Assembly: GCA_016183765.1 (NCBI GenBank)
Contig: JACPEA010000011.1
Location: forward strand, 496,001-560,000
DNA from: Bacteroidota bacterium
GTDB taxonomy: Bacteria; Bacteroidota; Bacteroidia; Chitinophagales; Chitinophagaceae
DNA length: 64,000 nucleotides
Direction: 5' to 3'
Made by a program: the position numbers and the translations under genes. Position 1 is the stretch's first letter; every line of letters starts with the position of its first letter. Below are positions 33,726 to 61,210 of the stretch, piece by piece. The notes under the pieces are model-generated. The model was not told where the DNA came from. It made no database searches and saw only the letters and a list, made by a program, of their open reading frames with translations.

Positions 33726-33812
33726 AATGAGTGAATGAGTGGATGAGTGGATGAGTGAATGGATGGAAAGCCTTAACATTCACTCATCCACTCATCCACT
33801 CATTCACTCATT
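33726..33812. terminator. Perfect 36-bp octamer-based inverted repeat between convergent genes
   Basis: The left arm 33726-33761 (octamers GAGTGAAT and GAGTGGAT in series) is the exact complement of the right arm 33777-33812, with a 15-base loop. It begins one base past the purF stop and ends two bases before the FabH-like stop, so it can end both transcripts. The same octamers recur at 61110-61210. Confidence 0.85.
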
Positions 33813-37456: not shown

Positions 37457-39754
37457 ATGGCTACAAGTACAAAAAAAACCGCTACCAAGGCAGCATCCTC
37501 CAAGCCTAAAAAAGCTACCACTACCCCCAAAGCGGCAACTAAAAAAAGCATCCCATCCCATTCCTATGATATTTATGGGGCCCTGGAACAGTATTTCGGC
37601 TTTCGTGAGTTCAAAGGCACCCAGGAAAAAGCGATCAACAGCATTCTCAACGGGAAAGATACATTTGTGATCATGCCTACGGGTGGCGGTAAAAGTCTTT
37701 GTTACCAGCTACCGGCCATGATGCTGCCGGGCTGCGCCATCATCGTATCGCCCCTGATCGCCCTGATGAAAAACCAGGTGGACCTGGTCCGTGGGTACAG
37801 CGAGAAGGACGAAGTGGCGCATTTTCTGAACTCTTCGCTGAATAAGAGCCAGATCAAAGAGGTGAAAGACGACCTGGACAGCGGTAAGACCAAACTGCTG
37901 TACGTAGCGCCTGAAACACTGACCAAACAGGAGAACCTGGAATATTTCAGCGACCTGGACATTTCTTTTTTTGCGGTGGATGAAGCACACTGTATTTCTG
38001 AATGGGGCCATGATTTCAGGCCGGAATACCGGCGACTGCGTGAGATGATGGATATCATCAATCCGGATATACCCGTGGTGGCATTGACGGCAACCGCTAC
38101 CCCCAAAGTAAAGAGCGATATTGTCAAGAACCTGGGTCTGCGTGAGCCGGAGATATTGTTGTCTTCGTTTAACCGATCCAACCTGTATTACGAGATCCAG
38201 CCCAAGATAGCGAAAGACCAGACCGTCAAGAGCATCGTTAAATTCATTACGGGCCACAAGGGGAAGAGCGGCATCATTTATACCCTGAACCGGAAAACGA
38301 CAGAAGAACTGGCTGAAATACTGGTGGCCAACCAGATCAAAGCGGTGGCATACCATGCCGGTCTCGACCAGAAACTGCGTGCCGAAAGGCAGGACCAGTT
38401 CCTGAACGAAGATGTACAGGTGATTGTAGCCACGATCGCCTTCGGAATGGGGATCGATAAACCGGATATCCGTTATGTGATCCATTTCAATATCCCCAAA
38501 TCCATCGAGAACTATTACCAGGAAACCGGTCGCGCAGGAAGAGATGGCATGGAAGGGATCTGTGTCCTGTATTATTCACACAAGGATGTGTCCAAACTGG
38601 AACACCTGATGCGTGATAAACCCTTGAGCGAACGTGAAGTAGGGGCGCAGCTGATCGATGAAACAGTGGCTTATGCCGAAAGCGCCGTTTGCCGAAGAAA
38701 GATACTGCTGCATTATTTCGGCGAGAACTGGGACACCCCCAATTGCGGCAACTGCGATAACTGTCTGCATCCCAAAGAAAAGATAGAAGCCAAAGAAGAT
38801 GTGGTGAAGATGCTGAAAACCATCAAGGCGCTGGATGAACGCTTTACCACCGACTATGCAGTGAACGTGGTGATGGGTAAACTGACCCCGCAGATCAATC
38901 TATACCGGCACGATTCCCTGCCGGTATTCGGGATCGGTAAGGACAAAGAAGCGCATTTATGGAACAGCCTGGTGCGGCAGATGCTGCTGGAGAACCTGAT
39001 CAAAAAAGACATTGAAGAGTACGGCTTGCTGAAGATGACCGAAAAAGGAGAGAAATTTCTCAAAAAACCGGCTTCATTCAAGATCGTACTGAACAACCTG
39101 TTCGAAGATGCGCAGTTTGATGAGGATGAAAATGAAAATGCTTCACAGGGCAGCGCTGCAGCGGATGAGAAGCTGTTCGAGATGTTGAAGGAACTTCGCC
39201 AGAAAGAGGCCAAGCGGAAAAGCCTGCCGCCTTTTGTGATCTTTCTCGAAAGTTCCCTGCAGGATATGGCCACCATTTATCCCACCACGCTGGAAGAGAT
39301 GGAGAAATGCCAGGGAGTAAGCAAAGGGAAAGCCCTCAAATACGGGAAGCCGTTCGTGGAACTGATCGCCAAATATGTTGAGGAGAATGATATTGAGAAG
39401 CCGGATGATTTTGTGATGAAGAGTGTGGCCAATAAAGCCAATAACAAGATCTATATCATCCAGAACGTGGATAAGAAGATACCGCTGGAAACCATTGCCA
39501 AAAACAAGAGCCTGCGTCTGGATGAATTACTGGAAGAGATGGAGACCATCGCGGCCAGCGGCACCAAACTGAACCTGGATTATGCCATCGACGAATGGCT
39601 GGACAGTTACGACCAGGAAGAGATCATCGATTATTTTAAAAACTGTGAAACCTCTTCACTCCAGGTAGCACAGGAGGAACTGAGTGAGAACAACTATAAC
39701 TGGGAGCAGCTGAAGATCATGCGGATCAAGTTCCTGAGTGTGTATGGAAACTGA
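37457..39754 (+). CDS. recQ: ATP-dependent DNA helicase RecQ
   Basis: This 765-residue 3'-5' helicase acts in recombination and replication repair. A Lys/Thr/Ala-rich tail of about 35 residues precedes the core. Motif I is [15 protein letters not shown], motif II is [21 protein letters not shown] is [10 protein letters not shown], and VI is [15 protein letters not shown] follows, with zinc cysteines at CRRKI and CGNCDNC, and HRDC at about residues 575-655 ([20 protein letters not shown]). A further C-terminal segment recalls the HTH/RQC-like tail of Bacteroidota RecQ. A terminator follows at 39797-39824. Confidence 0.96.
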
Positions 39755-39796
39755 TCGATGATGGCGCTGATCTTAATATGATTGATATGATTTTTT

Positions 39797-39824
39797 GGAG
39801 CCCGTTCTGTTAGGACGGGCTTTT
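39797..39824 (+). terminator. recQ terminator
   Basis: AGCCCGT and ACGGGCT pair around a 9-base loop, followed by TTTATATT. It lies 43 bp after the recQ stop. Confidence 0.75.
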
Positions 39825-39884
39825 ATATTGTTCAGGAGCCGTTGCTGCGACTGGCCTTGCTAATGATCCACTTTCAGGATCATT

Positions 39885-40218
39885 GCAACCAGGTGAAAGG
39901 AGTTCCCTACTGGTATTGTATTTCCCCTTGCCGCGGCCTTTAGGCCGTGGGATGATGAGGTGTTTTTTTCAGCCCGGCGAAAGGAGGGCCTGCTGGTATT
40001 GTATTTCCTCTTGCTGTGGTCTTCAGGCCGTGGGATGATGAGGTGTTTTTTCAGCCCGGCGAAAGGAGGGCCTGCTGGTATTGTATTTCCTCTTGCTGCG
40101 GTCTTCAGGCCGTGGGATGATCAGGTGTTTTTTTCAGCCCGGCGAAAGGAGTTCCTGCTGGTTTTGTATTTCCCCTTGCCGCGGCCTTCAGGCCGTGGAA
40201 TGATTAGGTGTTTTTTGA
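39885..40218 (+). repeat. Upstream REP array, four ~83-bp units
   Basis: Four tandem units of about 83 bp each carry a hairpin of the type CCGCGGCCTTTAGGCCGTGG (near 39929, 40010, 40093 and 40176), joined by conserved text including CAGCCCGGCGAAAGGAG. The shared core on this strand is TTCAGGCCG or TTTAGGCCG. The same core appears on the opposite strand in the downstream array (40800-41471), so the two arrays are inverted around the RAYT gene. An open frame over this array (39960-40238) is a by-product of the repeats. Confidence 0.88.
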
Positions 40219-40227
40219 TAGAGGGTT

Positions 40228-40243
40228 CCGGGCTTTAGCCCGG
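40228..40243. repeat. Inner left hairpin of the RAYT unit
   Basis: CCGGGC-TTTA-GCCCGG is a perfect stem with a 4-base loop, 75 bp before the RAYT start. Its partner on the right, in inverse orientation, is at 40785-40798. Confidence 0.7.
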
Positions 40244-40318
40244 GGTGGGGTTAAATAAACGGCAGCTCTGCGTATTAATACGCTATTGGAATAACCTGTT
40301 TCTTGTTTTCTTACATAC

Positions 40319-40792
40319 ATGTCATATACCAATGTTTATATCCATTATGTATGGGCTACCCGTAAACGGTGCCCCCTGCTCCAGATGCCTTACCGACATA
40401 CATTATTTGATCATATGTATCAGAATGCGTTACGAAAGGGTATCTATCTCGATCGGGTGAATGGTTTTACGGACCATATTCATTGCCTGGTTTGGCTAAG
40501 GCCGGCACAAACTATGGATGCGGTGGCTCAATTACTGAAAGGAGAATCGGCCTATTGGTTTAATCATTATGGGGGTTTTGGCGACCTGAAGTTGCAATGG
40601 CAGGAAGGTTATTTTGCGGCATCTGTTTGTTTATCCATGATTGAGAAGGTGAGGGCTTATATTGATAATCAGGAGCAGCATCATCAGAAAAGAACATTTA
40701 TTGAGGAATATGAACAATGGAAGAAGTTGTATTTGCTAACAAAAGATCTTGATAACAGTCTGGCCCATTACCAATTAAAGACCCGGCGCTAA
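40319..40792 (+). mobile_element. RAYT: REP-associated Y1 (HUH) transposase
   Basis: This 157-residue transposase is of the IS200/IS605 TnpA-like RAYT group. These cut and rejoin single-stranded DNA at REP hairpins using a tyrosine. The HUH motif is DHIHCLVWL (His53, His55), the catalytic Tyr is in RAYIDNQEQHH (Tyr114), and WQEGYFAASVCLS is the family marker. Length and fold are complete, so it could be active. It sits between two inverted hairpins (40228-40243 and 40785-40798) and, outside these, two inverted REP arrays. It is a domesticated or self-copying REPtron rather than an ordinary insertion sequence. Confidence 0.9.
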
Positions 40793-40798
40793 AGCGCC
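40785..40798. repeat. Inner right hairpin overlapping the RAYT stop codon
   Basis: GGCGCTAAAGCGCC is a perfect stem straddling the TAA stop at 40790-40792. In inverse orientation it reads GGCGCTTTAGCGCC, resembling the left hairpin. Confidence 0.65.
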
Positions 40799-40799
40799 T

Positions 40800-41471
40800 G
40801 AGCCAATTATCTTTCACCTCCTGTAACCCCCGGCCTGAAGTCCGGGGCAAGATTTAGATGAGATAGAACAAATGTCATAGCCAATTATCTTTCACCTCCT
40901 GTAACCTCCGGCCTGAAGTCCGGGGCAAGATTTAGATGGGATAGAACAAATGTCATAGCCAATTATCTTTCACCTCCTGTAACCCCCGGCCTGAAGTCCG
41001 GGGCAAGATTTAGATGGGATAGAACAAATGTCATAGCCAATCATTCTCACCTTCTGTAACCTCCGGCCTGAAGTCCGGGCAAGATTTAGATAAGATAGAA
41101 CAAATGTTATAGCCAATTATCTTTCACCTCCTGTAACCCCGGCCTGAAGTCCGGGGCAAGATTTAGATAAGATAGAACAAATGTCATAGCCAATTATCTT
41201 TCACCTTCTGAATCTCCCGGCCTGAAGTCCGGGGCAAGATTTAGATGAGATAGAGCAAATGTTATAGTCAATCATTTTCACTTCCTGTAACCCCCGGCCT
41301 GAAGTCCGGGCAAGATTTAGATGAGATAGAGCAAATGTCATAGCCAATTATCTTTCACCTCCTGTAACCCCCGGCCTGAAGTCCGGGCAAGATTTAGATG
41401 AGATAGAACAAATGTCATAGCCAATTATCTTTCACCTCCTGTAACCCCCGGCCTGAAGTCCGGGGCAAGAA
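40800..41471 (+). repeat. Downstream REP array, nine ~77-bp units
   Basis: Nine tandem units of about 77 bp each carry a CCCCGGCCTGAAGTCCGGGG-type hairpin (near 40831, 40909, 40988, 41064, 41140, 41218, 41295, 41371 and 41449), separated by a conserved linker with CAAGATTTAGATGAGATAG and ATAGCCAATTATCTTTCACC. The linkers are conserved too, so this is not a CRISPR. The remaining gap, 41472-41638, shows nothing else. Confidence 0.92.
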
Positions 41472-41638
41472 CCTACAACCGGAGCAATGCCTGAAAAGTG
41501 CATAATAATTTCAGAAATCCGTCAAATAACTGAAAACGAAACAAGAGCATGCGTATCAGGCAAATTGATACCTGTTATACCGACAGATAAAAGGAACATC
41601 AAAAATTGATCTACCCGGCCATTGCCCTGAAGTATGGA

Positions 41639-44233
41639 TCAAATTGCCCGTGCAATGGGTAAAAAAGCATCCAGTGTGTAGGCACCTTGTACAGCACGGT
41701 TCTCGTATACCATGAAGTACCTGTAGGCATTTCCGGCTTTGGCGGCCCAGGCATTCCCGAGACGGATTTTTGCCTCCGCATCCAGGTGATCACCTTTGGT
41801 TTCAAGGATAATGGTTTTGCCCGATTTGCTCCTGATAATGAAGTCGGGGTAGTGATTGATATAACCATTGATACAAAATCCTTTTCTTTCTATGTTCCGT
41901 GTCCAGAAAGCAATATTTTCCATATTGGCTATTTCATTGATGACGCGTTCTTCAAAACCATTCATGCGTCCTTCTGTTTCGTATAAGGATTTTGGAAAAT
42001 CTTTGGAAATATCGCCTGGAATGATCTCAGGCGGAAAACGGTAAGAAGGACGTATCAAAACCTTATCAGTGTCCAGGAATTCCCTGAATTTTTTCTCTGC
42101 AAAAAGTTCTTTCAGGCTGTTGATTTTGGCCTTGATTTTATCGGCATAACTGTATTCATGGCTGACCAGTGATATGAACTGCTCATCACCGAAACCTTCC
42201 AGTATCCGGCTGATATATTTCATTATTTCACTGTCGGGAATGGGGTCGAACTTACCGATGATAGTCATGATCCTTTTGGTAAAATTTTTTACCCGGCTGT
42301 CTATTCTGGCAGGGTCCAGCAGGTAAGCCTGCAGGCTATCGCGGATAGCACCATCCAGTTTGATAAAACTGGGTGTATGTTCTTTTTTACTTTCATCAAG
42401 GTCTACCTTATAGAGGTTGGCAGTAACGTTGGTAAAATCAATTTTGGTGTCTTCCTGCGACAGTTTAAAATCTCTATCCAGCAGTTCCTCTTTTTCCAGC
42501 AGTTTATCACCCCCGAAAATCTCGCCTGCGGGCACCTGCAGAAAAAACTGGGGTATCTGCATCGAAAGTGCATCGGGCCGGAAGAACTCCTTCATGCTGT
42601 ATTTTTTCACGATCGATTGGATTTCGGAGGGTAAGGAAATGGTTTGTGTATGCGCCGATTCCATCACCCTGGCATCCATGGCGCTTGTTTCCTGGATGGC
42701 CATGGTTTCGATGATGGATAGGGGCTCGGCAGGTGCTTCTGTTTCGATCATAGCCATAATCCGTGCGGAATCAATGCCGGAACTGATATCTTCCTCCTGT
42801 TCTTCCCCGTCTGTTGCAAAAACCGTTAACTGGTTCAATACCTGGTTCGGAGCGGGCGTTGTAGTGGTGGCGTTTGTTTCGGGTAGTTTGTAGTCCTGTT
42901 TACTGAACCCCGCTTTATTTAACCCCTTTACAATATTATCCAGGGTGTCGATGAATTTATCGGAAGCAGTCAGTACATAACTCAGGTTTAGCAAAGCAAA
43001 ACTATGTTTGGTAACATAGGGTTGACGCAGCACCCGGCCCAGGATCTGCTCTACGTCTACCGCCGATGATTTGTCGGCAAGCGAGGCAAGGATATACGCA
43101 AAAGGACAATCCCAGCCTTCTTTTAATACATTAACAGTGATGATATACCTAACAGGACAATCCGGGCTCATCAGGTCCTCGGATTTGATCTCATTGATAT
43201 TGGCCGTTTTAATACGGATTTGTTCGGCAGGTATTTGTAATTCAACCAGTTTTTCTTTCAGTTTTTCAAATGTGGTATTGTCTTCTGCGTTCCGGGGCTG
43301 TGCCTGAAACAGTACGATGGGCCTGATATAACGTCCCCCGTTTTTATGTTCTTCCAGGGCCTCTTTCTCCAGTTTGCGTTGCAGTTGCAGGGCCGAATGG
43401 ATCACTTCTGTTTTGTCGTGATGGTTGTATACAATTACGGGCAGTTTCACCATATTCTCCCGTTTCAGTTCCAGGGCATCCACAAAACTGATGATATTAC
43501 TGTTTTTACGGGGCGTAGCCGTAAGGTCGAGAATAAAGCAGGGGTTCAGGTTAACCAGCATATCAACACTGAGTTCGCTTTCTGCGTTATGACTTTCATC
43601 CACCACCACCACCGGGTTAAGCGCCTGTATCACTTTCATCAGGCTGATCTCTTCTTCGGTACCCAGCAGGGAGCCGAAAGATTGCAGGTTACCATTTTCC
43701 TGGTACACTTTCCGGTCTTCTTTACTGCGCGAGCGAAAGCTGTCGAAGCTCATCACAATAATATTGAGCTGCTCCTGCACACTGGAAGGGTTAAAACTGC
43801 TGCCCTGCAGCAGGGCCGACTTATCAAAAATTTCCACGCGGCCGTTAAAATGGGTATTCAGTTTTTGCCGGTAGGGATGCGAAGAATCGCTAAGGTTACG
43901 CAGGGTTTGATCCAGGATGGTGATGGAAGGCACCAGCCATACCACCACTTTGTTCTTATCGTAAGAGAATGAATCGAAAATGGTTTTAATGGCGTTGCAG
44001 GCAATAAAGGTTTTACCGCCGGCAGTGGGTACTTTTACGCATACATGCGGTACACCGGGAATATTGTTTTTATAAGGCTCAATAGCCGATCCCACAAAAG
44101 GCTGGAGAGGCGTTTTGGGGTGCTGCGACCAAAATCCGTAAAACGAATCACCCAGGTGTTTTACTTCCTGTAAACGGGAAAGAAATCTTTCCAGGTCGGC
44201 GATAACATCCTGCTGGTATTTTTTCAGTTCCAT
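41639..44233 (-). CDS. res: Type III restriction endonuclease subunit (Res)
   Basis: This 864-residue subunit moves on DNA and cuts when two Mod sites meet head-to-head. The SF2 helicase part has motif I KVPTAGGKT (residues 67-75), DESH (212-215), LTATPRK (238-243) and QILGRVLRQP near 405. A helical linker follows, with a PD-(D/E)XK endonuclease near the C-terminus: YPDFIIRSKSGKTIILETKG, with Asp, Glu and Lys of the active site present. It lies 8 bp after mod, co-transcribed. All motifs look intact, so cutting activity is likely. Confidence 0.92.
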   Translation of the reverse strand: MELKKYQQDVIADLERFLSRLQEVKHLGDSFYGFWSQHPKTPLQPFVGSAIEPYKNNIPGVPHVCVKVPTAGGKTFIACNAIKTIFDSFSYDKNKVVVWLVPSITILDQTLRNLSDSSHPYRQKLNTHFNGRVEIFDKSALLQGSSFNPSSVQEQLNIIVMSFDSFRSRSKEDRKVYQENGNLQSFGSLLGTEEEISLMKVIQALNPVVVVDESHNAESELSVDMLVNLNPCFILDLTATPRKNSNIISFVDALELKRENMVKLPVIVYNHHDKTEVIHSALQLQRKLEKEALEEHKNGGRYIRPIVLFQAQPRNAEDNTTFEKLKEKLVELQIPAEQIRIKTANINEIKSEDLMSPDCPVRYIITVNVLKEGWDCPFAYILASLADKSSAVDVEQILGRVLRQPYVTKHSFALLNLSYVLTASDKFIDTLDNIVKGLNKAGFSKQDYKLPETNATTTTPAPNQVLNQLTVFATDGEEQEEDISSGIDSARIMAMIETEAPAEPLSIIETMAIQETSAMDARVMESAHTQTISLPSEIQSIVKKYSMKEFFRPDALSMQIPQFFLQVPAGEIFGGDKLLEKEELLDRDFKLSQEDTKIDFTNVTANLYKVDLDESKKEHTPSFIKLDGAIRDSLQAYLLDPARIDSRVKNFTKRIMTIIGKFDPIPDSEIMKYISRILEGFGDEQFISLVSHEYSYADKIKAKINSLKELFAEKKFREFLDTDKVLIRPSYRFPPEIIPGDISKDFPKSLYETEGRMNGFEERVINEIANMENIAFWTRNIERKGFCINGYINHYPDFIIRSKSGKTIILETKGDHLDAEAKIRLGNAWAAKAGNAYRYFMVYENRAVQGAYTLDAFLPIARAI

Positions 44234-44241
44234 AGGCTGGC

Positions 44242-45825
44242 TTAAAACCGTGTGATATCTCGCGGTATTTTTTTAAAACGGATAGCATACATTGTCAGGT
44301 ACTCGCTGGTAAGTGTACAATTGTCTGCGTATATAATATATTCTTCAGCTTTGGTCCGGATGGTGGCCAGAAAATCATGGTCAAGTGTGGTGGCACGCCC
44401 GGGTTCATAAAAAAAATAATAAGCCGTTTGGTTGTGCAGGCCCAGCAAAAAAGGGTTGTCTTTATTTTTAGCCGTATCGGGTAAAGCCTGCTGGGTTTCC
44501 GTGTAAAAAATATAGCGGCGCAGCTCTTTTACCGGAACCGACTCATTCAGAATACCTTCTTCTGTAAAAATGGGGTGCCCCAGCGTATAATAATCAAAGC
44601 CGCCGCCGGTGCCTTCTTTGTCTGCATAACCACCGATCACCCGTTTCACCCTTTCGGCTGTAATGGTTTCGGCATAGTTCTCCATTTCAATGAGAATGAA
44701 CTTGCGATTGCCCCCATCCTGTTTGTTCAGGTTTAATACCGCATGGGCCGTAGTGCCGGAGCCAGCGAATGAGTCGAGGATGATGGCATTTTTATCAGTA
44801 CTCAGCTGAACTAATCGCTCCATTAGTTTTAGTGGTTTGGGTGTGTCAAATGGCAGGCTACTTTCAGGAAAAATTTGTTTTATCTCTTTTTTTGCTTCCT
44901 GTGTGTGACCAACTTCCTTATATGTCCAAACTGTTAATGGGGTCATCCCGTCTTTAACATCACTTTTGAATCTTTTCAGTCTAGGCATATTAGAGCCTGT
45001 TTCTCCAAACCAAATTCTTGATTCACTTTGTAACTCATTGAATCTTTCTTCGGTGACAACCCAACATCTTCCGGAAGGGGGCAAGTAAGTTTGCCCGGAG
45101 GGAGTTGTGATTTGATAAAGTTTCTCTTTTATGACAGGCCCAACTGTTAGATCGCTTGAAGTCCAATCTCCTCGGCTATCATTGTCTGGATTAGCGTATC
45201 TGTTATCTGCATCTTCTGTTCTTGGTAAGCTGAATTCTACTTGGCTAGCTTTTTTTGCGTAGCATAGAATAAAGTCGTGATTCGGCGAAAACCTTTTTTT
45301 GGTATTTATTGGAGAAAATGCCCTCTGCCAAATGACATTATTTATAAAGTTGTTAGTACCGAAAATCTCATCTAACAATAATTTTAGATTTGCCTGTTCA
45401 TAATCATCAATTGAACAAAAGAAGATGCCATCATCTGATAAAAGCCTATGTAGAAGTTTTATCCTTGGATACATCATGCAAAGCCATTTATCATCACGCG
45501 AAAGATCTTCCCCTTCTTTGCCAACAATTTTTGAAAACCATTTTTGAATTGTCGGATGGTTTACTTTATCAGTATATAACCATTGTTCTTTCCCGGTATT
45601 ATACGGCGGATCTATATAAATACACTTGATCTTTCCTTCATACTCCGGCAGTAAAGCTTTCAGCGCTTCCAGGTTATCGCCATGAATGATCCGGTTCCCG
45701 CTTCCGCCGACCGATTTACTTTTTTTCCCGTTAGGGAAACCATACCCATGCTCCAAAACACGGAAAGGCACGTCGAGGTGATGGTTGATCACCTTGTCTT
45801 TTCCTATCCAATGTAATGTGGGCAT
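44242..45825 (-). CDS. mod: Type III modification methyltransferase (Mod)
   Basis: This 527-residue beta-class N6-adenine methyltransferase sets the target sequence of the type III system. Motif IV is IYIDPPYNTG (DPPY 72-75) and motif I is ILDSFAGSGTTAHAVL (353-359), in the beta order. The target recognition region between (about 150-310) is clearly more AT-rich in DNA than the rest of the gene, suggesting a swapped domain. The start IHGDNLEALKALLP is standard. The divergent XRE regulator at 45965 is a likely controller. Confidence 0.92.
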   Translation of the reverse strand: MPTLHWIGKDKVINHHLDVPFRVLEHGYGFPNGKKSKSVGGSGNRIIHGDNLEALKALLPEYEGKIKCIYIDPPYNTGKEQWLYTDKVNHPTIQKWFSKIVGKEGEDLSRDDKWLCMMYPRIKLLHRLLSDDGIFFCSIDDYEQANLKLLLDEIFGTNNFINNVIWQRAFSPINTKKRFSPNHDFILCYAKKASQVEFSLPRTEDADNRYANPDNDSRGDWTSSDLTVGPVIKEKLYQITTPSGQTYLPPSGRCWVVTEERFNELQSESRIWFGETGSNMPRLKRFKSDVKDGMTPLTVWTYKEVGHTQEAKKEIKQIFPESSLPFDTPKPLKLMERLVQLSTDKNAIILDSFAGSGTTAHAVLNLNKQDGGNRKFILIEMENYAETITAERVKRVIGGYADKEGTGGGFDYYTLGHPIFTEEGILNESVPVKELRRYIFYTETQQALPDTAKNKDNPFLLGLHNQTAYYFFYEPGRATTLDHDFLATIRTKAEEYIIYADNCTLTSEYLTMYAIRFKKIPRDITRF

Positions 45826-61064: not shown

Positions 61065-61109
61065 ACAGTGATTTTATTGATGGTGCAAAGTAAAGGAAAA
61101 GTAGGGAGG

Positions 61110-61210
61110 AATAAGTGAATGAGTGGGTGAGTGAATGAGTGGATGAGTGGATGAGTGAATAAGTGAATGAGTGGGTGAGTGAATGAGTGGATGAGTGGAT
61201 GAGTGAATGG
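61110..61210 (+). repeat. Tandem octamer array, two 48-bp units
   Basis: Octamers of the form RRTRAGTG (mainly GAGTGAAT and GAGTGGAT) repeat about 12 times as two identical 48-bp units (61110-61157 and 61158-61205). There is only one orientation here, unlike the mirrored arrangement of the same octamers at 33726-33812. Confidence 0.85.

What the first reader, a model, noticed from the sequence alone, without database searches (positions are those of the whole stretch)
39885..41471. RAYT transposase nested in two shells of inverted hairpins (REPtron)
An intact HUH transposase is flanked by inner hairpins of GCTTTAGC type and outer arrays (four 83-bp and nine 77-bp units). The array cores (TTCAGGCCG) point in opposite directions on the two sides. 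The two arrays have different linkers, hinting at independent expansions of one REP family. RAYT/REP systems are described mainly in Gammaproteobacteria.
Basis: partly seen in the sequence, partly recalled or inferred. Interest (0 to 1): 0.62.

Follow-up and report, generated by a model that had tools for sequence, protein, structure and literature searches.

The report
Hairpin-repeat family of an IS200-like transposase
A small single-strand DNA-cutting enzyme in a Bacteroidota bacterium sits inside two nested pairs of hairpin repeats, and the same kind of hairpins are scattered elsewhere in its genome and flank the enzyme's relatives in other Bacteroidota, although the survey that defined this enzyme group recorded it as having no such repeats.

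Summary
In detail: a 157-aa Y1 HUH transposase (40319-40792, Tyr114) lies between inner hairpins and outer arrays (4 hairpins left, 9 right) that point in opposite directions. "RAYT/REPtron" is right in how it probably works, not in family. By motif (YIDNQEQHH) the protein fits TnpA-Y1 subclass 1.2, close to IS200 transposases; it lacks the RAYT Y---NP motif, the RAYT profile score and the GTAG foot. The 2018 survey that defined subclass 1.2 lists it with REP "no".

The hairpins are nevertheless REP-like: foot mostly (A/C)TTG, 8-bp stem, loop TTYA. They are about 30-fold denser beside the 21 genes of its clade than farther out in the same loci, and 19-fold in 29 independent loci (27 positive). 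21 model hits lie elsewhere in this genome; all 7 close pairs are inverted with feet outward, like REPINs. In the genus, four gene-bearing genomes outside the model have 31-46 hits; of 15 gene-negative ones 14 have 0 or 1.

The "two shells" are a module: an outer hairpin, then a same-strand inner one 44-47 nt on (35-40 nt in six loci of other families). Cleavage and mobility are inferred, not shown.

The parts
40319..40792 (+). Y1 HUH transposase gene, 157 aa, TnpA-Y1 subclass 1.2 by motif (DHIH, WQ, YIDNQEQHH)
40475..40483 (+). codons H53-I54-H55 of the HUH motif (position computed from the residue number)
40658..40660 (+). codon of the expected catalytic tyrosine Y114 (position computed from the residue number)
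39906..40216 (+). left outer array, 83-bp units x 3.8; hairpins at 39931-39950, 40014-40033, 40096-40115, 40179-40198, each with foot CTTG and loop TTTA or TTCA
40226..40245 (+). inner left hairpin, loop TTTA, no TTG foot, 47 nt (loop to loop) after the last left outer hairpin
40782..40801 (-). inner right hairpin, loop TTTA on the - strand, 6 of 8 pairs; its loop holds the gene's stop codon; 46 nt from the first right outer hairpin
40801..41470 (-). right outer array, 77-bp units x 8.7; nine hairpins starting at 40828, 40906, 40984, 41061, 41137, 41215, 41292, 41369, 41446 (20 nt each), foot CTTG and loop TTCA on the - strand; 3 of 9 have lost one stem base

Best explanation
This is a REPtron-like locus run by a class 1 (IS200-side, subclass 1.2 by motif) Y1 transposase instead of a class 2 RAYT. 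Its substrate is a hairpin of a kind I found in no paper searched: foot (A/C)TTG, 8-bp stem of free sequence, loop TTYA, in some lineages followed on the same strand by a second, footless hairpin with loop TTYA at a near-fixed distance (44-47 nt in this genome). One such module points inwards from each side of the gene with its foot outwards. Gene-less copies (two inverted modules, outer hairpins 134-150 bp apart, or a single module) are scattered between genes as presumed non-autonomous elements. Proposed working: the enzyme, presumably a dimer, reads the TTYA loop and stem on single-stranded DNA, uses the TTG foot as the guide that picks the cut dinucleotide (predicted CA by the IS608/Marinomonas rule), and cuts and rejoins through Tyr114, so modules are copied or moved while the gene stays put. 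Local units then multiply in tandem, as in the 4- and 9-hairpin arrays. Shown by computation: the protein family and motifs, the hairpin type, enrichment, dispersal, inverted pairing, fixed spacing, co-occurrence of gene and repeats, and the difference in array size between relatives. Inferred: binding, cleavage, the guide rule, mobility, and how the arrays grew.
For: Enrichment: in 21 clade-A loci, 68 hairpins in 19.2 kb of flanks (450 bp each side) against 5 in 42.8 kb farther out; clade B (36 loci) 6 in 32.7 kb and clade C (13 loci) 0 in 11.9 kb, so it follows the protein clade. Independent repeat on 29 loci from outside the window's family: 27 of 29 positive, 22 on both sides, 109 hairpins in 26.4 kb against 13 in 59.9 kb; 29 of 29 proteins have Y---Q--HH. 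Foot TTG: 34 of 65 against 2.3% background; 46 of 109 in the independent set. Dispersal: 30 model hits at E<=0.1 in the genome, 9 at this locus and 21 elsewhere; all 7 close pairs among these 21 are foot-outward, 134-150 bp apart; 0 of 19 TTG-footed hairpins in 11 stretches lie in an ORF of 150 aa or more. Gene and repeats together: 18 of 18 gene-bearing genomes tested have 2-30 hits, 2 of 12 without a match have 1 (partly circular because the model holds hairpins of 17 of the 18). Not circular: in the genus, four genomes outside the model whose best match is 43-67% identical (G205, G195, G156, G181) have 42, 45, 31, 46 hits; of 15 gene-negative genomes 11 have 0, 3 have 1, one has 9 (Fisher p 0.0013 at a cut of 5 hits chosen afterwards, no correction for kinship). 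Fixed spacing: 13 of 19 TTG-footed hairpins in 11 own-genome stretches have a same-strand TTYA hairpin 44-47 nt downstream, one has one at 125 nt, no others between 20 and 150 nt, none upstream; the window has 46 and 47. Loop: T, T and A are invariant and the third base is T or C (the scan asked for TTYA, but a count of 8-4-8 hairpins with any loop in the 29 independent loci also gives TTYA or its complement in 109 of 155 near the genes, and at least 12 of 129 farther out); T, T and A are the positions found essential, and the third found free, in the Marinomonas REP (passages of PMC8266576). Fold: the top 30 PDB matches are all Y1 transposases.
Against: No biochemical data. No clean empty site was found: at the one dispersed locus compared in G207 the repeats are absent, but the intervening DNA also differs. 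Foot-outward orientation is strict among the close pairs of the window's genome but only a tendency elsewhere (41 of 65, binomial p 0.046; 68 of 109); in G205 9 of 10 listed close pairs are outward, in G195 0 of 4 (typed part of the list). About half of the hairpins beside the genes have feet other than TTG (31 of 65; 63 of 109). 6 of 27 gene-negative genomes have at least one hit and G173 has nine. L020 has no hairpin within 450 bp, and L228 and L233 have none. The double module is frequent only in the window's genus: in 19 other family loci 3 of 26 outer hairpins have a second one downstream at 42-46 nt and 2 have one upstream at 45-49 nt; in the phylum set 15 of 55 have one downstream at 35-40 nt, all from 6 of 29 loci in three genera, and 3 have one upstream at 46-47 nt. 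Hits that match on both strands are counted twice: G156's 31 hits lie at no more than 21 places.
Confidence: 0.82

Rival explanations
1. Ordinary transcription terminators or mRNA-stabilising hairpins that happen to flank the gene; no link with the enzyme.
For: Hairpins are intergenic and mostly GC-rich; the recQ gene beside the locus does end in a terminator-like hairpin (sequence).
Against: The loop is fixed as TTYA whatever the stem; the base after the hairpin is A or G in 56 of 65 cases and T in 4, unlike a terminator's T-run; the type is specific to one protein clade, forms arrays of 4 and 9, and gives 0 or 1 hit in 14 of 15 gene-negative genomes of the same genus.
Confidence: 0.04
2. A plain IS200-like insertion sequence whose ends are these hairpins and which moves as one unit with its gene.
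For: Passes NCBIfam's IS200 cut-off; the closest folds are IS200/IS605 transposases.
Against: One copy in the genome; the other two full-length Y1 proteins are 36% and 34% identical to it; the ends are inverted shells, not the same-strand pair of ends that I recall for IS200/IS605; the gene lies beside recQ in three genomes of the group (G000, G207, G205) while gene-less modules are what is dispersed.
Confidence: 0.08
3. Dispersed hairpins are relics of an older element and the present protein is domesticated for another task, such as repair of stalled forks, without acting on them.
For: Copy numbers are modest (21 dispersed hits); six of fourteen elements read are single modules; G173 has nine hits without a detected gene.
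Against: Most dispersed stems, spacings and pairings are intact; beside the genes the stem sequence changes between lineages while pairing and loop are kept (although those rows were chosen for pairing); array sizes differ between close relatives.
Confidence: 0.15

Closest known systems
TnpA-Y1 subclass 1.2 (Quentin et al. 2018, PMC6006769; abstract, sections 12, 18, 38 and passages read)
   Same: DH[IV]H, WQ, Y---Q--HH, short protein, low copy number, Bacteroidetes
   Different: Its table gives REP 'no' and the text says it is generally without typical IS200 terminal secondary structures; here the genes have REP-like hairpins. The automatic REP search described there was built on GTAG or GTGG feet (section 38), which would miss a TTG foot; the parts read do not say whether subclass 1.2 was also inspected by hand
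RAYT / TnpA-REP REPtrons (class 2; E. coli, Stenotrophomonas, Marinomonas)
   Same: HUH-Y1 enzyme flanked by foot-plus-hairpin repeats that are dispersed between genes; the Marinomonas REP loop TTTA has the same essential positions T, T, A (passages of PMC8266576)
   Different: Catalytic motif Y---Q--HH instead of Y---NP; commonest foot (A/C)TTG instead of GTAG/GTGG; double-hairpin module in some lineages
REPINs (Bertels and Rainey 2011, PMC3116915; passages read)
   Same: Inverted repeat pairs that act as the unit of dispersal
   Different: Here each arm holds two hairpins in tandem; outer hairpins start 134-150 bp apart, against 71 bp between the ends of GI REPINs
IS200/IS605 insertion sequences
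   Same: Nearest protein relatives by profile, sequence and fold
   Different: No multi-copy IS; end geometry differs (IS geometry recalled)

Membership tests
TnpA-Y1 subclass 1.2 | Y motif Y---Q--HH | tested here: met
   YIDNQEQHH in the window protein; 20 of 21 clade A, 35 of 36 B, 4 of 4 D, 1 of 13 C; 29 of 29 phylum loci
TnpA-Y1 subclass 1.2 | HUH motif DH[IV]H and WQ | tested here: met
   DHIH at 52, WQE at 94 in the window protein; 17 of 21 clade-A proteins have [DN]H-H, the other four EH-H
TnpA-Y1 subclass 1.2 | placement in the published tree or by its own profiles | not tested
   published profiles and reference sequences were not at hand; assignment rests on motifs
TnpA-Y1 subclass 1.2 | absence of REPs (as published) | tested here: not met
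   this is the point of difference
RAYT / TnpA-REP (class 2) | Y---NP catalytic motif | tested here: not met
   0 of 74 proteins
RAYT / TnpA-REP (class 2) | NCBIfam REP_Tyr_transpos cut-off (80 bits) | tested here: not met
   no match at E<=0.01 for the window protein; five relatives scanned reach at most 25.4 bits
RAYT / TnpA-REP (class 2) | GTAG or GTGG foot | tested here: not met
   CTTG in the window; GTAG 1 of 65, GTGG 0 of 65 in clade A
REP system (functional sense) | foot-plus-hairpin repeats beside the gene and dispersed in the genome | tested here: met
REP system (functional sense) | enzyme cuts and rejoins single-stranded repeats | not testable with these tools
   needs purified protein
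IS200/IS605 insertion sequence | IS200 profile cut-off | tested here: met
   61 bits against 55
IS200/IS605 insertion sequence | several near-identical copies with the gene | tested here: not met
   one copy; the other two full-length Y1 proteins are 36% and 34% identical

The most novel reading that the evidence does not exclude
REP systems arose (or persisted) on the IS200 side of the Y1 family as well as on the RAYT side. Across Bacteroidota, subclass 1.2 enzymes keep cognate repeat populations with clade-specific stem length and loop (TTYA in clade A; short GC stem with GTA or GAA loop in clade B), and in some lineages the mobile unit is a two-hairpin module that resembles a miniature left-plus-right IS end pair on one strand.
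Probability: 0.5. Interest if true: 0.75.

Novelty: new variant of a known kind. Interest (0 to 1): 0.62.

Why it matters
If true, a group of HUH enzymes described as neither insertion sequence nor REP-associated gains a substrate. That makes its function testable and offers a second line in which to ask how transposases become tied to chromosomal repeats. 84 of 395 genomes drawn from the phylum have a match to the window protein at E<=1e-24 (not all of these need be clade A). Clades with different stems and loops would let one map which residues read which part of the hairpin. The genus also offers a natural comparison, with gene-bearing and gene-free species differing in repeat content.

Tried and rejected
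The first genome count used the exact right-array core with one mismatch: nine hits, all in the right array, which looked like refutation of dispersal. The pattern is its own reverse as a string, so its built-in control was void, and it was too strict because stems vary; the covariance model R1 replaced it.

The pair-covariation count is strongly positive, but the rows were chosen for pairing, and I left out by hand 10 of the 59 hairpins printed (weaker or duplicate ones) before aligning 49; I give it little weight and rest on the near/far comparison. Rfam gives no match at or above a gathering score for 39700-41600 (four chance-level hits at E<=1). Clean empty sites: L110 flanks gave no usable synteny; L094 gave a locus without the repeats in G207 but with other differences. 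The AlphaFold model rests on three sequences (pLDDT 69.6) and is used only for fold class. For the partial-repeat ladders no shuffle control was run. Repeat counts are lower bounds because at most 150 candidates a genome were scored, and the listings are cut; L015 and probably many of the other genomes are MAGs or drafts, so arrays may be collapsed.

I gave 18 of the 19 clade-A genomes of the family search (G112 left out) and 12 of the 73 family genomes without a match. In one search I gave 15 of the 51 genus members without a match, chosen mostly for completeness, and of the nine gene-bearing genus members besides G000 the four with the closest matches (43-67%); G159, G177, G182, G189 and G190 (29-38%) were not tested. 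That these four are clade A rests on identity and on the hairpins; they were not put in the tree. For the neighbourhood count I used 74 loci: three of the window's genome, L015, L016 and 69 others; the rest of the matches were not fetched. From I used the 29 new loci that the call returned, not its other matches. Downstream of recQ, 19 further genus loci were read over 0.3-1.5 kb: none has the gene there; G205's copy was found through. Literature: seven searches were answered; by titles and abstract starts none lists a paper on REPs of subclass 1.2 other than the 2018 survey that says there are none (one search listed 20 of 196 papers, 20 of 71). I saw the outline and passages of the 2025 RepRanger paper (PMC12306157): RAYT and transposase occur 0 times. 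The library lacks most subscription papers.

Full report
WHAT IS THERE. The window is part of a 3.67-Mb, 17-contig genome (G000). Its closest named relative at this locus is a Chitinophagaceae MAG. The gene at 40319-40792 encodes a 157-aa Y1 HUH transposase, with DHIH at 52, WQE at 94 and YIDNQEQHH at 114. It lies between recQ (37457-39754, +) and an ORF with a type III restriction Res domain (41639-44233, -) that is followed by a DNA methylase. On its left are four hairpins in 83-bp units, on its right nine in 77-bp units, and between these and the gene one inner hairpin on each side. The outer hairpins begin with CTTG and have loop TTTA or TTCA; left ones read on the + strand, right ones on the - strand. 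Loop-to-loop distances from outer to inner hairpin are 47 nt (left) and 46 nt (right). The gene's stop codon is in the loop of the inner right hairpin.

A RELATED LOCUS. L015 (JADBXR010000017.1) has the same gene order and an 88% identical protein. The inner hairpins are kept and there is one full outer hairpin on each side, plus at least one partial unit on the left. The right array can be aligned to its single unit, linker included. So the arrays most likely grew in the window's lineage, each from its own neighbouring DNA; loss or assembly collapse in the MAG cannot be excluded.

THE HAIRPIN GOES WITH ONE CLADE OF ENZYMES. I searched 147 genomes of the family (74 with a match), took 74 loci and built a tree. 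The window protein falls in clade A (21 rows, support 100/97). Hairpins with 8-bp stem and TTYA loop (TTAA included) number 68 in 19.2 kb of clade-A flanks and 5 in 42.8 kb farther out; clade B has 6 in 32.7 kb, clade C 0 in 11.9 kb, clade D (4 loci) 11 in 3.3 kb. TTG precedes 34 of 65 of the TTYA ones, mostly as ATTG (18) or CTTG (13), against 2.3% expected. The test was then repeated with the same settings (TTYA loops only) on 29 loci from other families of the phylum: 27 of 29 positive, 109 in 26.4 kb against 13 in 59.9 kb. Clade B has a different type, a short GC stem with GTA or GAA loop: stems with a 3-nt loop occur at 2.4 and 1.6 per kb (left, right) against 0.24 farther out.

THE HAIRPIN IS DISPERSED. 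A covariance model of 49 hairpins finds 38 matches at E<=10 in the genome, 30 at E<=0.1; of these 9 are at this locus and 21 elsewhere. All 7 pairs closer than 200 bp among the 21 are foot-outward, at 134-150 bp. In 11 stretches I saw eight two-module elements, two of them with a decayed left outer hairpin, and six single modules (counted by eye). None of 19 TTG-footed hairpins is in an ORF of at least 150 aa. 13 of these 19 have the inner hairpin 44-47 nt on. The two shells around the gene and the dispersed elements thus share one architecture. Outside the family, 15 of 55 outer hairpins, in 6 of 29 loci from three genera, have a second one at 35-40 nt; in 19 other loci of the family it is 3 of 26, at 42-46 nt.

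GENE AND REPEATS TOGETHER. In the family, 18 of 18 gene-bearing genomes have 2-30 hits and 2 of 12 genomes without a match have one each. That is partly circular, since the model holds hairpins of 17 of the 18 (G100 gave none). In the genus, four gene-bearing genomes outside the model (best matches 43-67% identical) have 42, 45, 31 and 46 hits, the 31 of G156 at no more than 21 places, and G207 (the genome of L015) has 11; of 15 gene-negative ones 11 have none, 3 have one and G173 has nine.

HOW IT PROBABLY WORKS. The loop rule T-T-N-A was found by selection and mutation for the Marinomonas REP (PMC8266576, passages), where the foot also steers the cut dinucleotide; the loops here are TTYA. 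By that rule a TTG foot predicts CA. The predicted fold is that of IS608/ISDra2 transposases, with the RAYT-hairpin structure 4er8 as rank 30. I infer strand-specific cutting and rejoining through Tyr114. One outer plus one inner hairpin on the same strand could serve as a minimal pair of ends for one dimer; this is a proposal.

WHAT IT IS CALLED. By motif it is TnpA-Y1 subclass 1.2, described in PMC6006769 as close to IS200 transposases, low in copy number, and with REP 'no' (sections 12, 18, 38 and passages). It is not a class 2 RAYT by motif, profile or foot. It works like a REPtron. The seven answered literature searches listed no report of REPs for this subclass.

OPEN POINTS. Cleavage and mobility are untested. 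At the recQ locus the gene is also present in G205 (67% identical), while G195, with recQ 95% identical, has a 267-bp x 4.2 hairpin array there and no gene on that 8.3-kb contig. Seven of 21 TTG-footed hairpins (own genome and L015) have partial units (foot, left stem, start of loop) within 200 nt outside the foot, 17 outside and 0 inside, with a 14-nt period in the longest run (no shuffle control); I cannot say whether slippage or the enzyme made them.

Noticed in passing
L197 4916-5340 and 6380-6680; L199 near 4460 and 6390; L203 near 4017; L015 4840-4875: Ladders of partial repeats (foot, left stem, start of loop) with a 14-nt period in the longest run, only on the outer side of the foot: 17 outside, 0 inside (no shuffle control). 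Cause unknown.
   Followed up: partly
window 40790-40792; also L137, L022 and L025: The transposase stop codon lies in the loop of the hairpin that overlaps the end of the gene.
   Followed up: partly
G195:C230 (L154): At the orthologous recQ locus of the closest relative by recQ identity, a 267-bp x 4.2 hairpin array and no transposase gene on that contig.
   Followed up: partly
L001, L002 and clade B loci: The genome's other two full-length Y1 genes have their own hairpins: L001 with CCCC-GTA-GGGG / CCCC-ATC-GGGG types, L002 with arrays of GCCCTTTCAGGGC and CGGGGAGAATCCCCACG types.
   Followed up: partly
window 41639-45825 and L002: Two of the genome's three full-length Y1 genes sit beside what look like restriction-modification genes (Res/methylase here; hsdS- and hsdR-like neighbours in L002 by eye). 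No enrichment test was made.
   Followed up: no
G173: Nine repeat hits without a transposase match at E<=1e-8: possible orphan repeats.
   Followed up: no
G000:C12 end (L095) and C6:9-101 (L004): Pieces of another Y1 gene, looking like an ordinary IS200 transposase, cut by contig ends (C12 read by eye; for C6).
   Followed up: no
window 33726-33812 and 61109-61209: Tandem arrays of an 8-base unit GAATGAGT / CATTCACT, similar letters also near dispersed repeats in L088 and L090.
   Followed up: no
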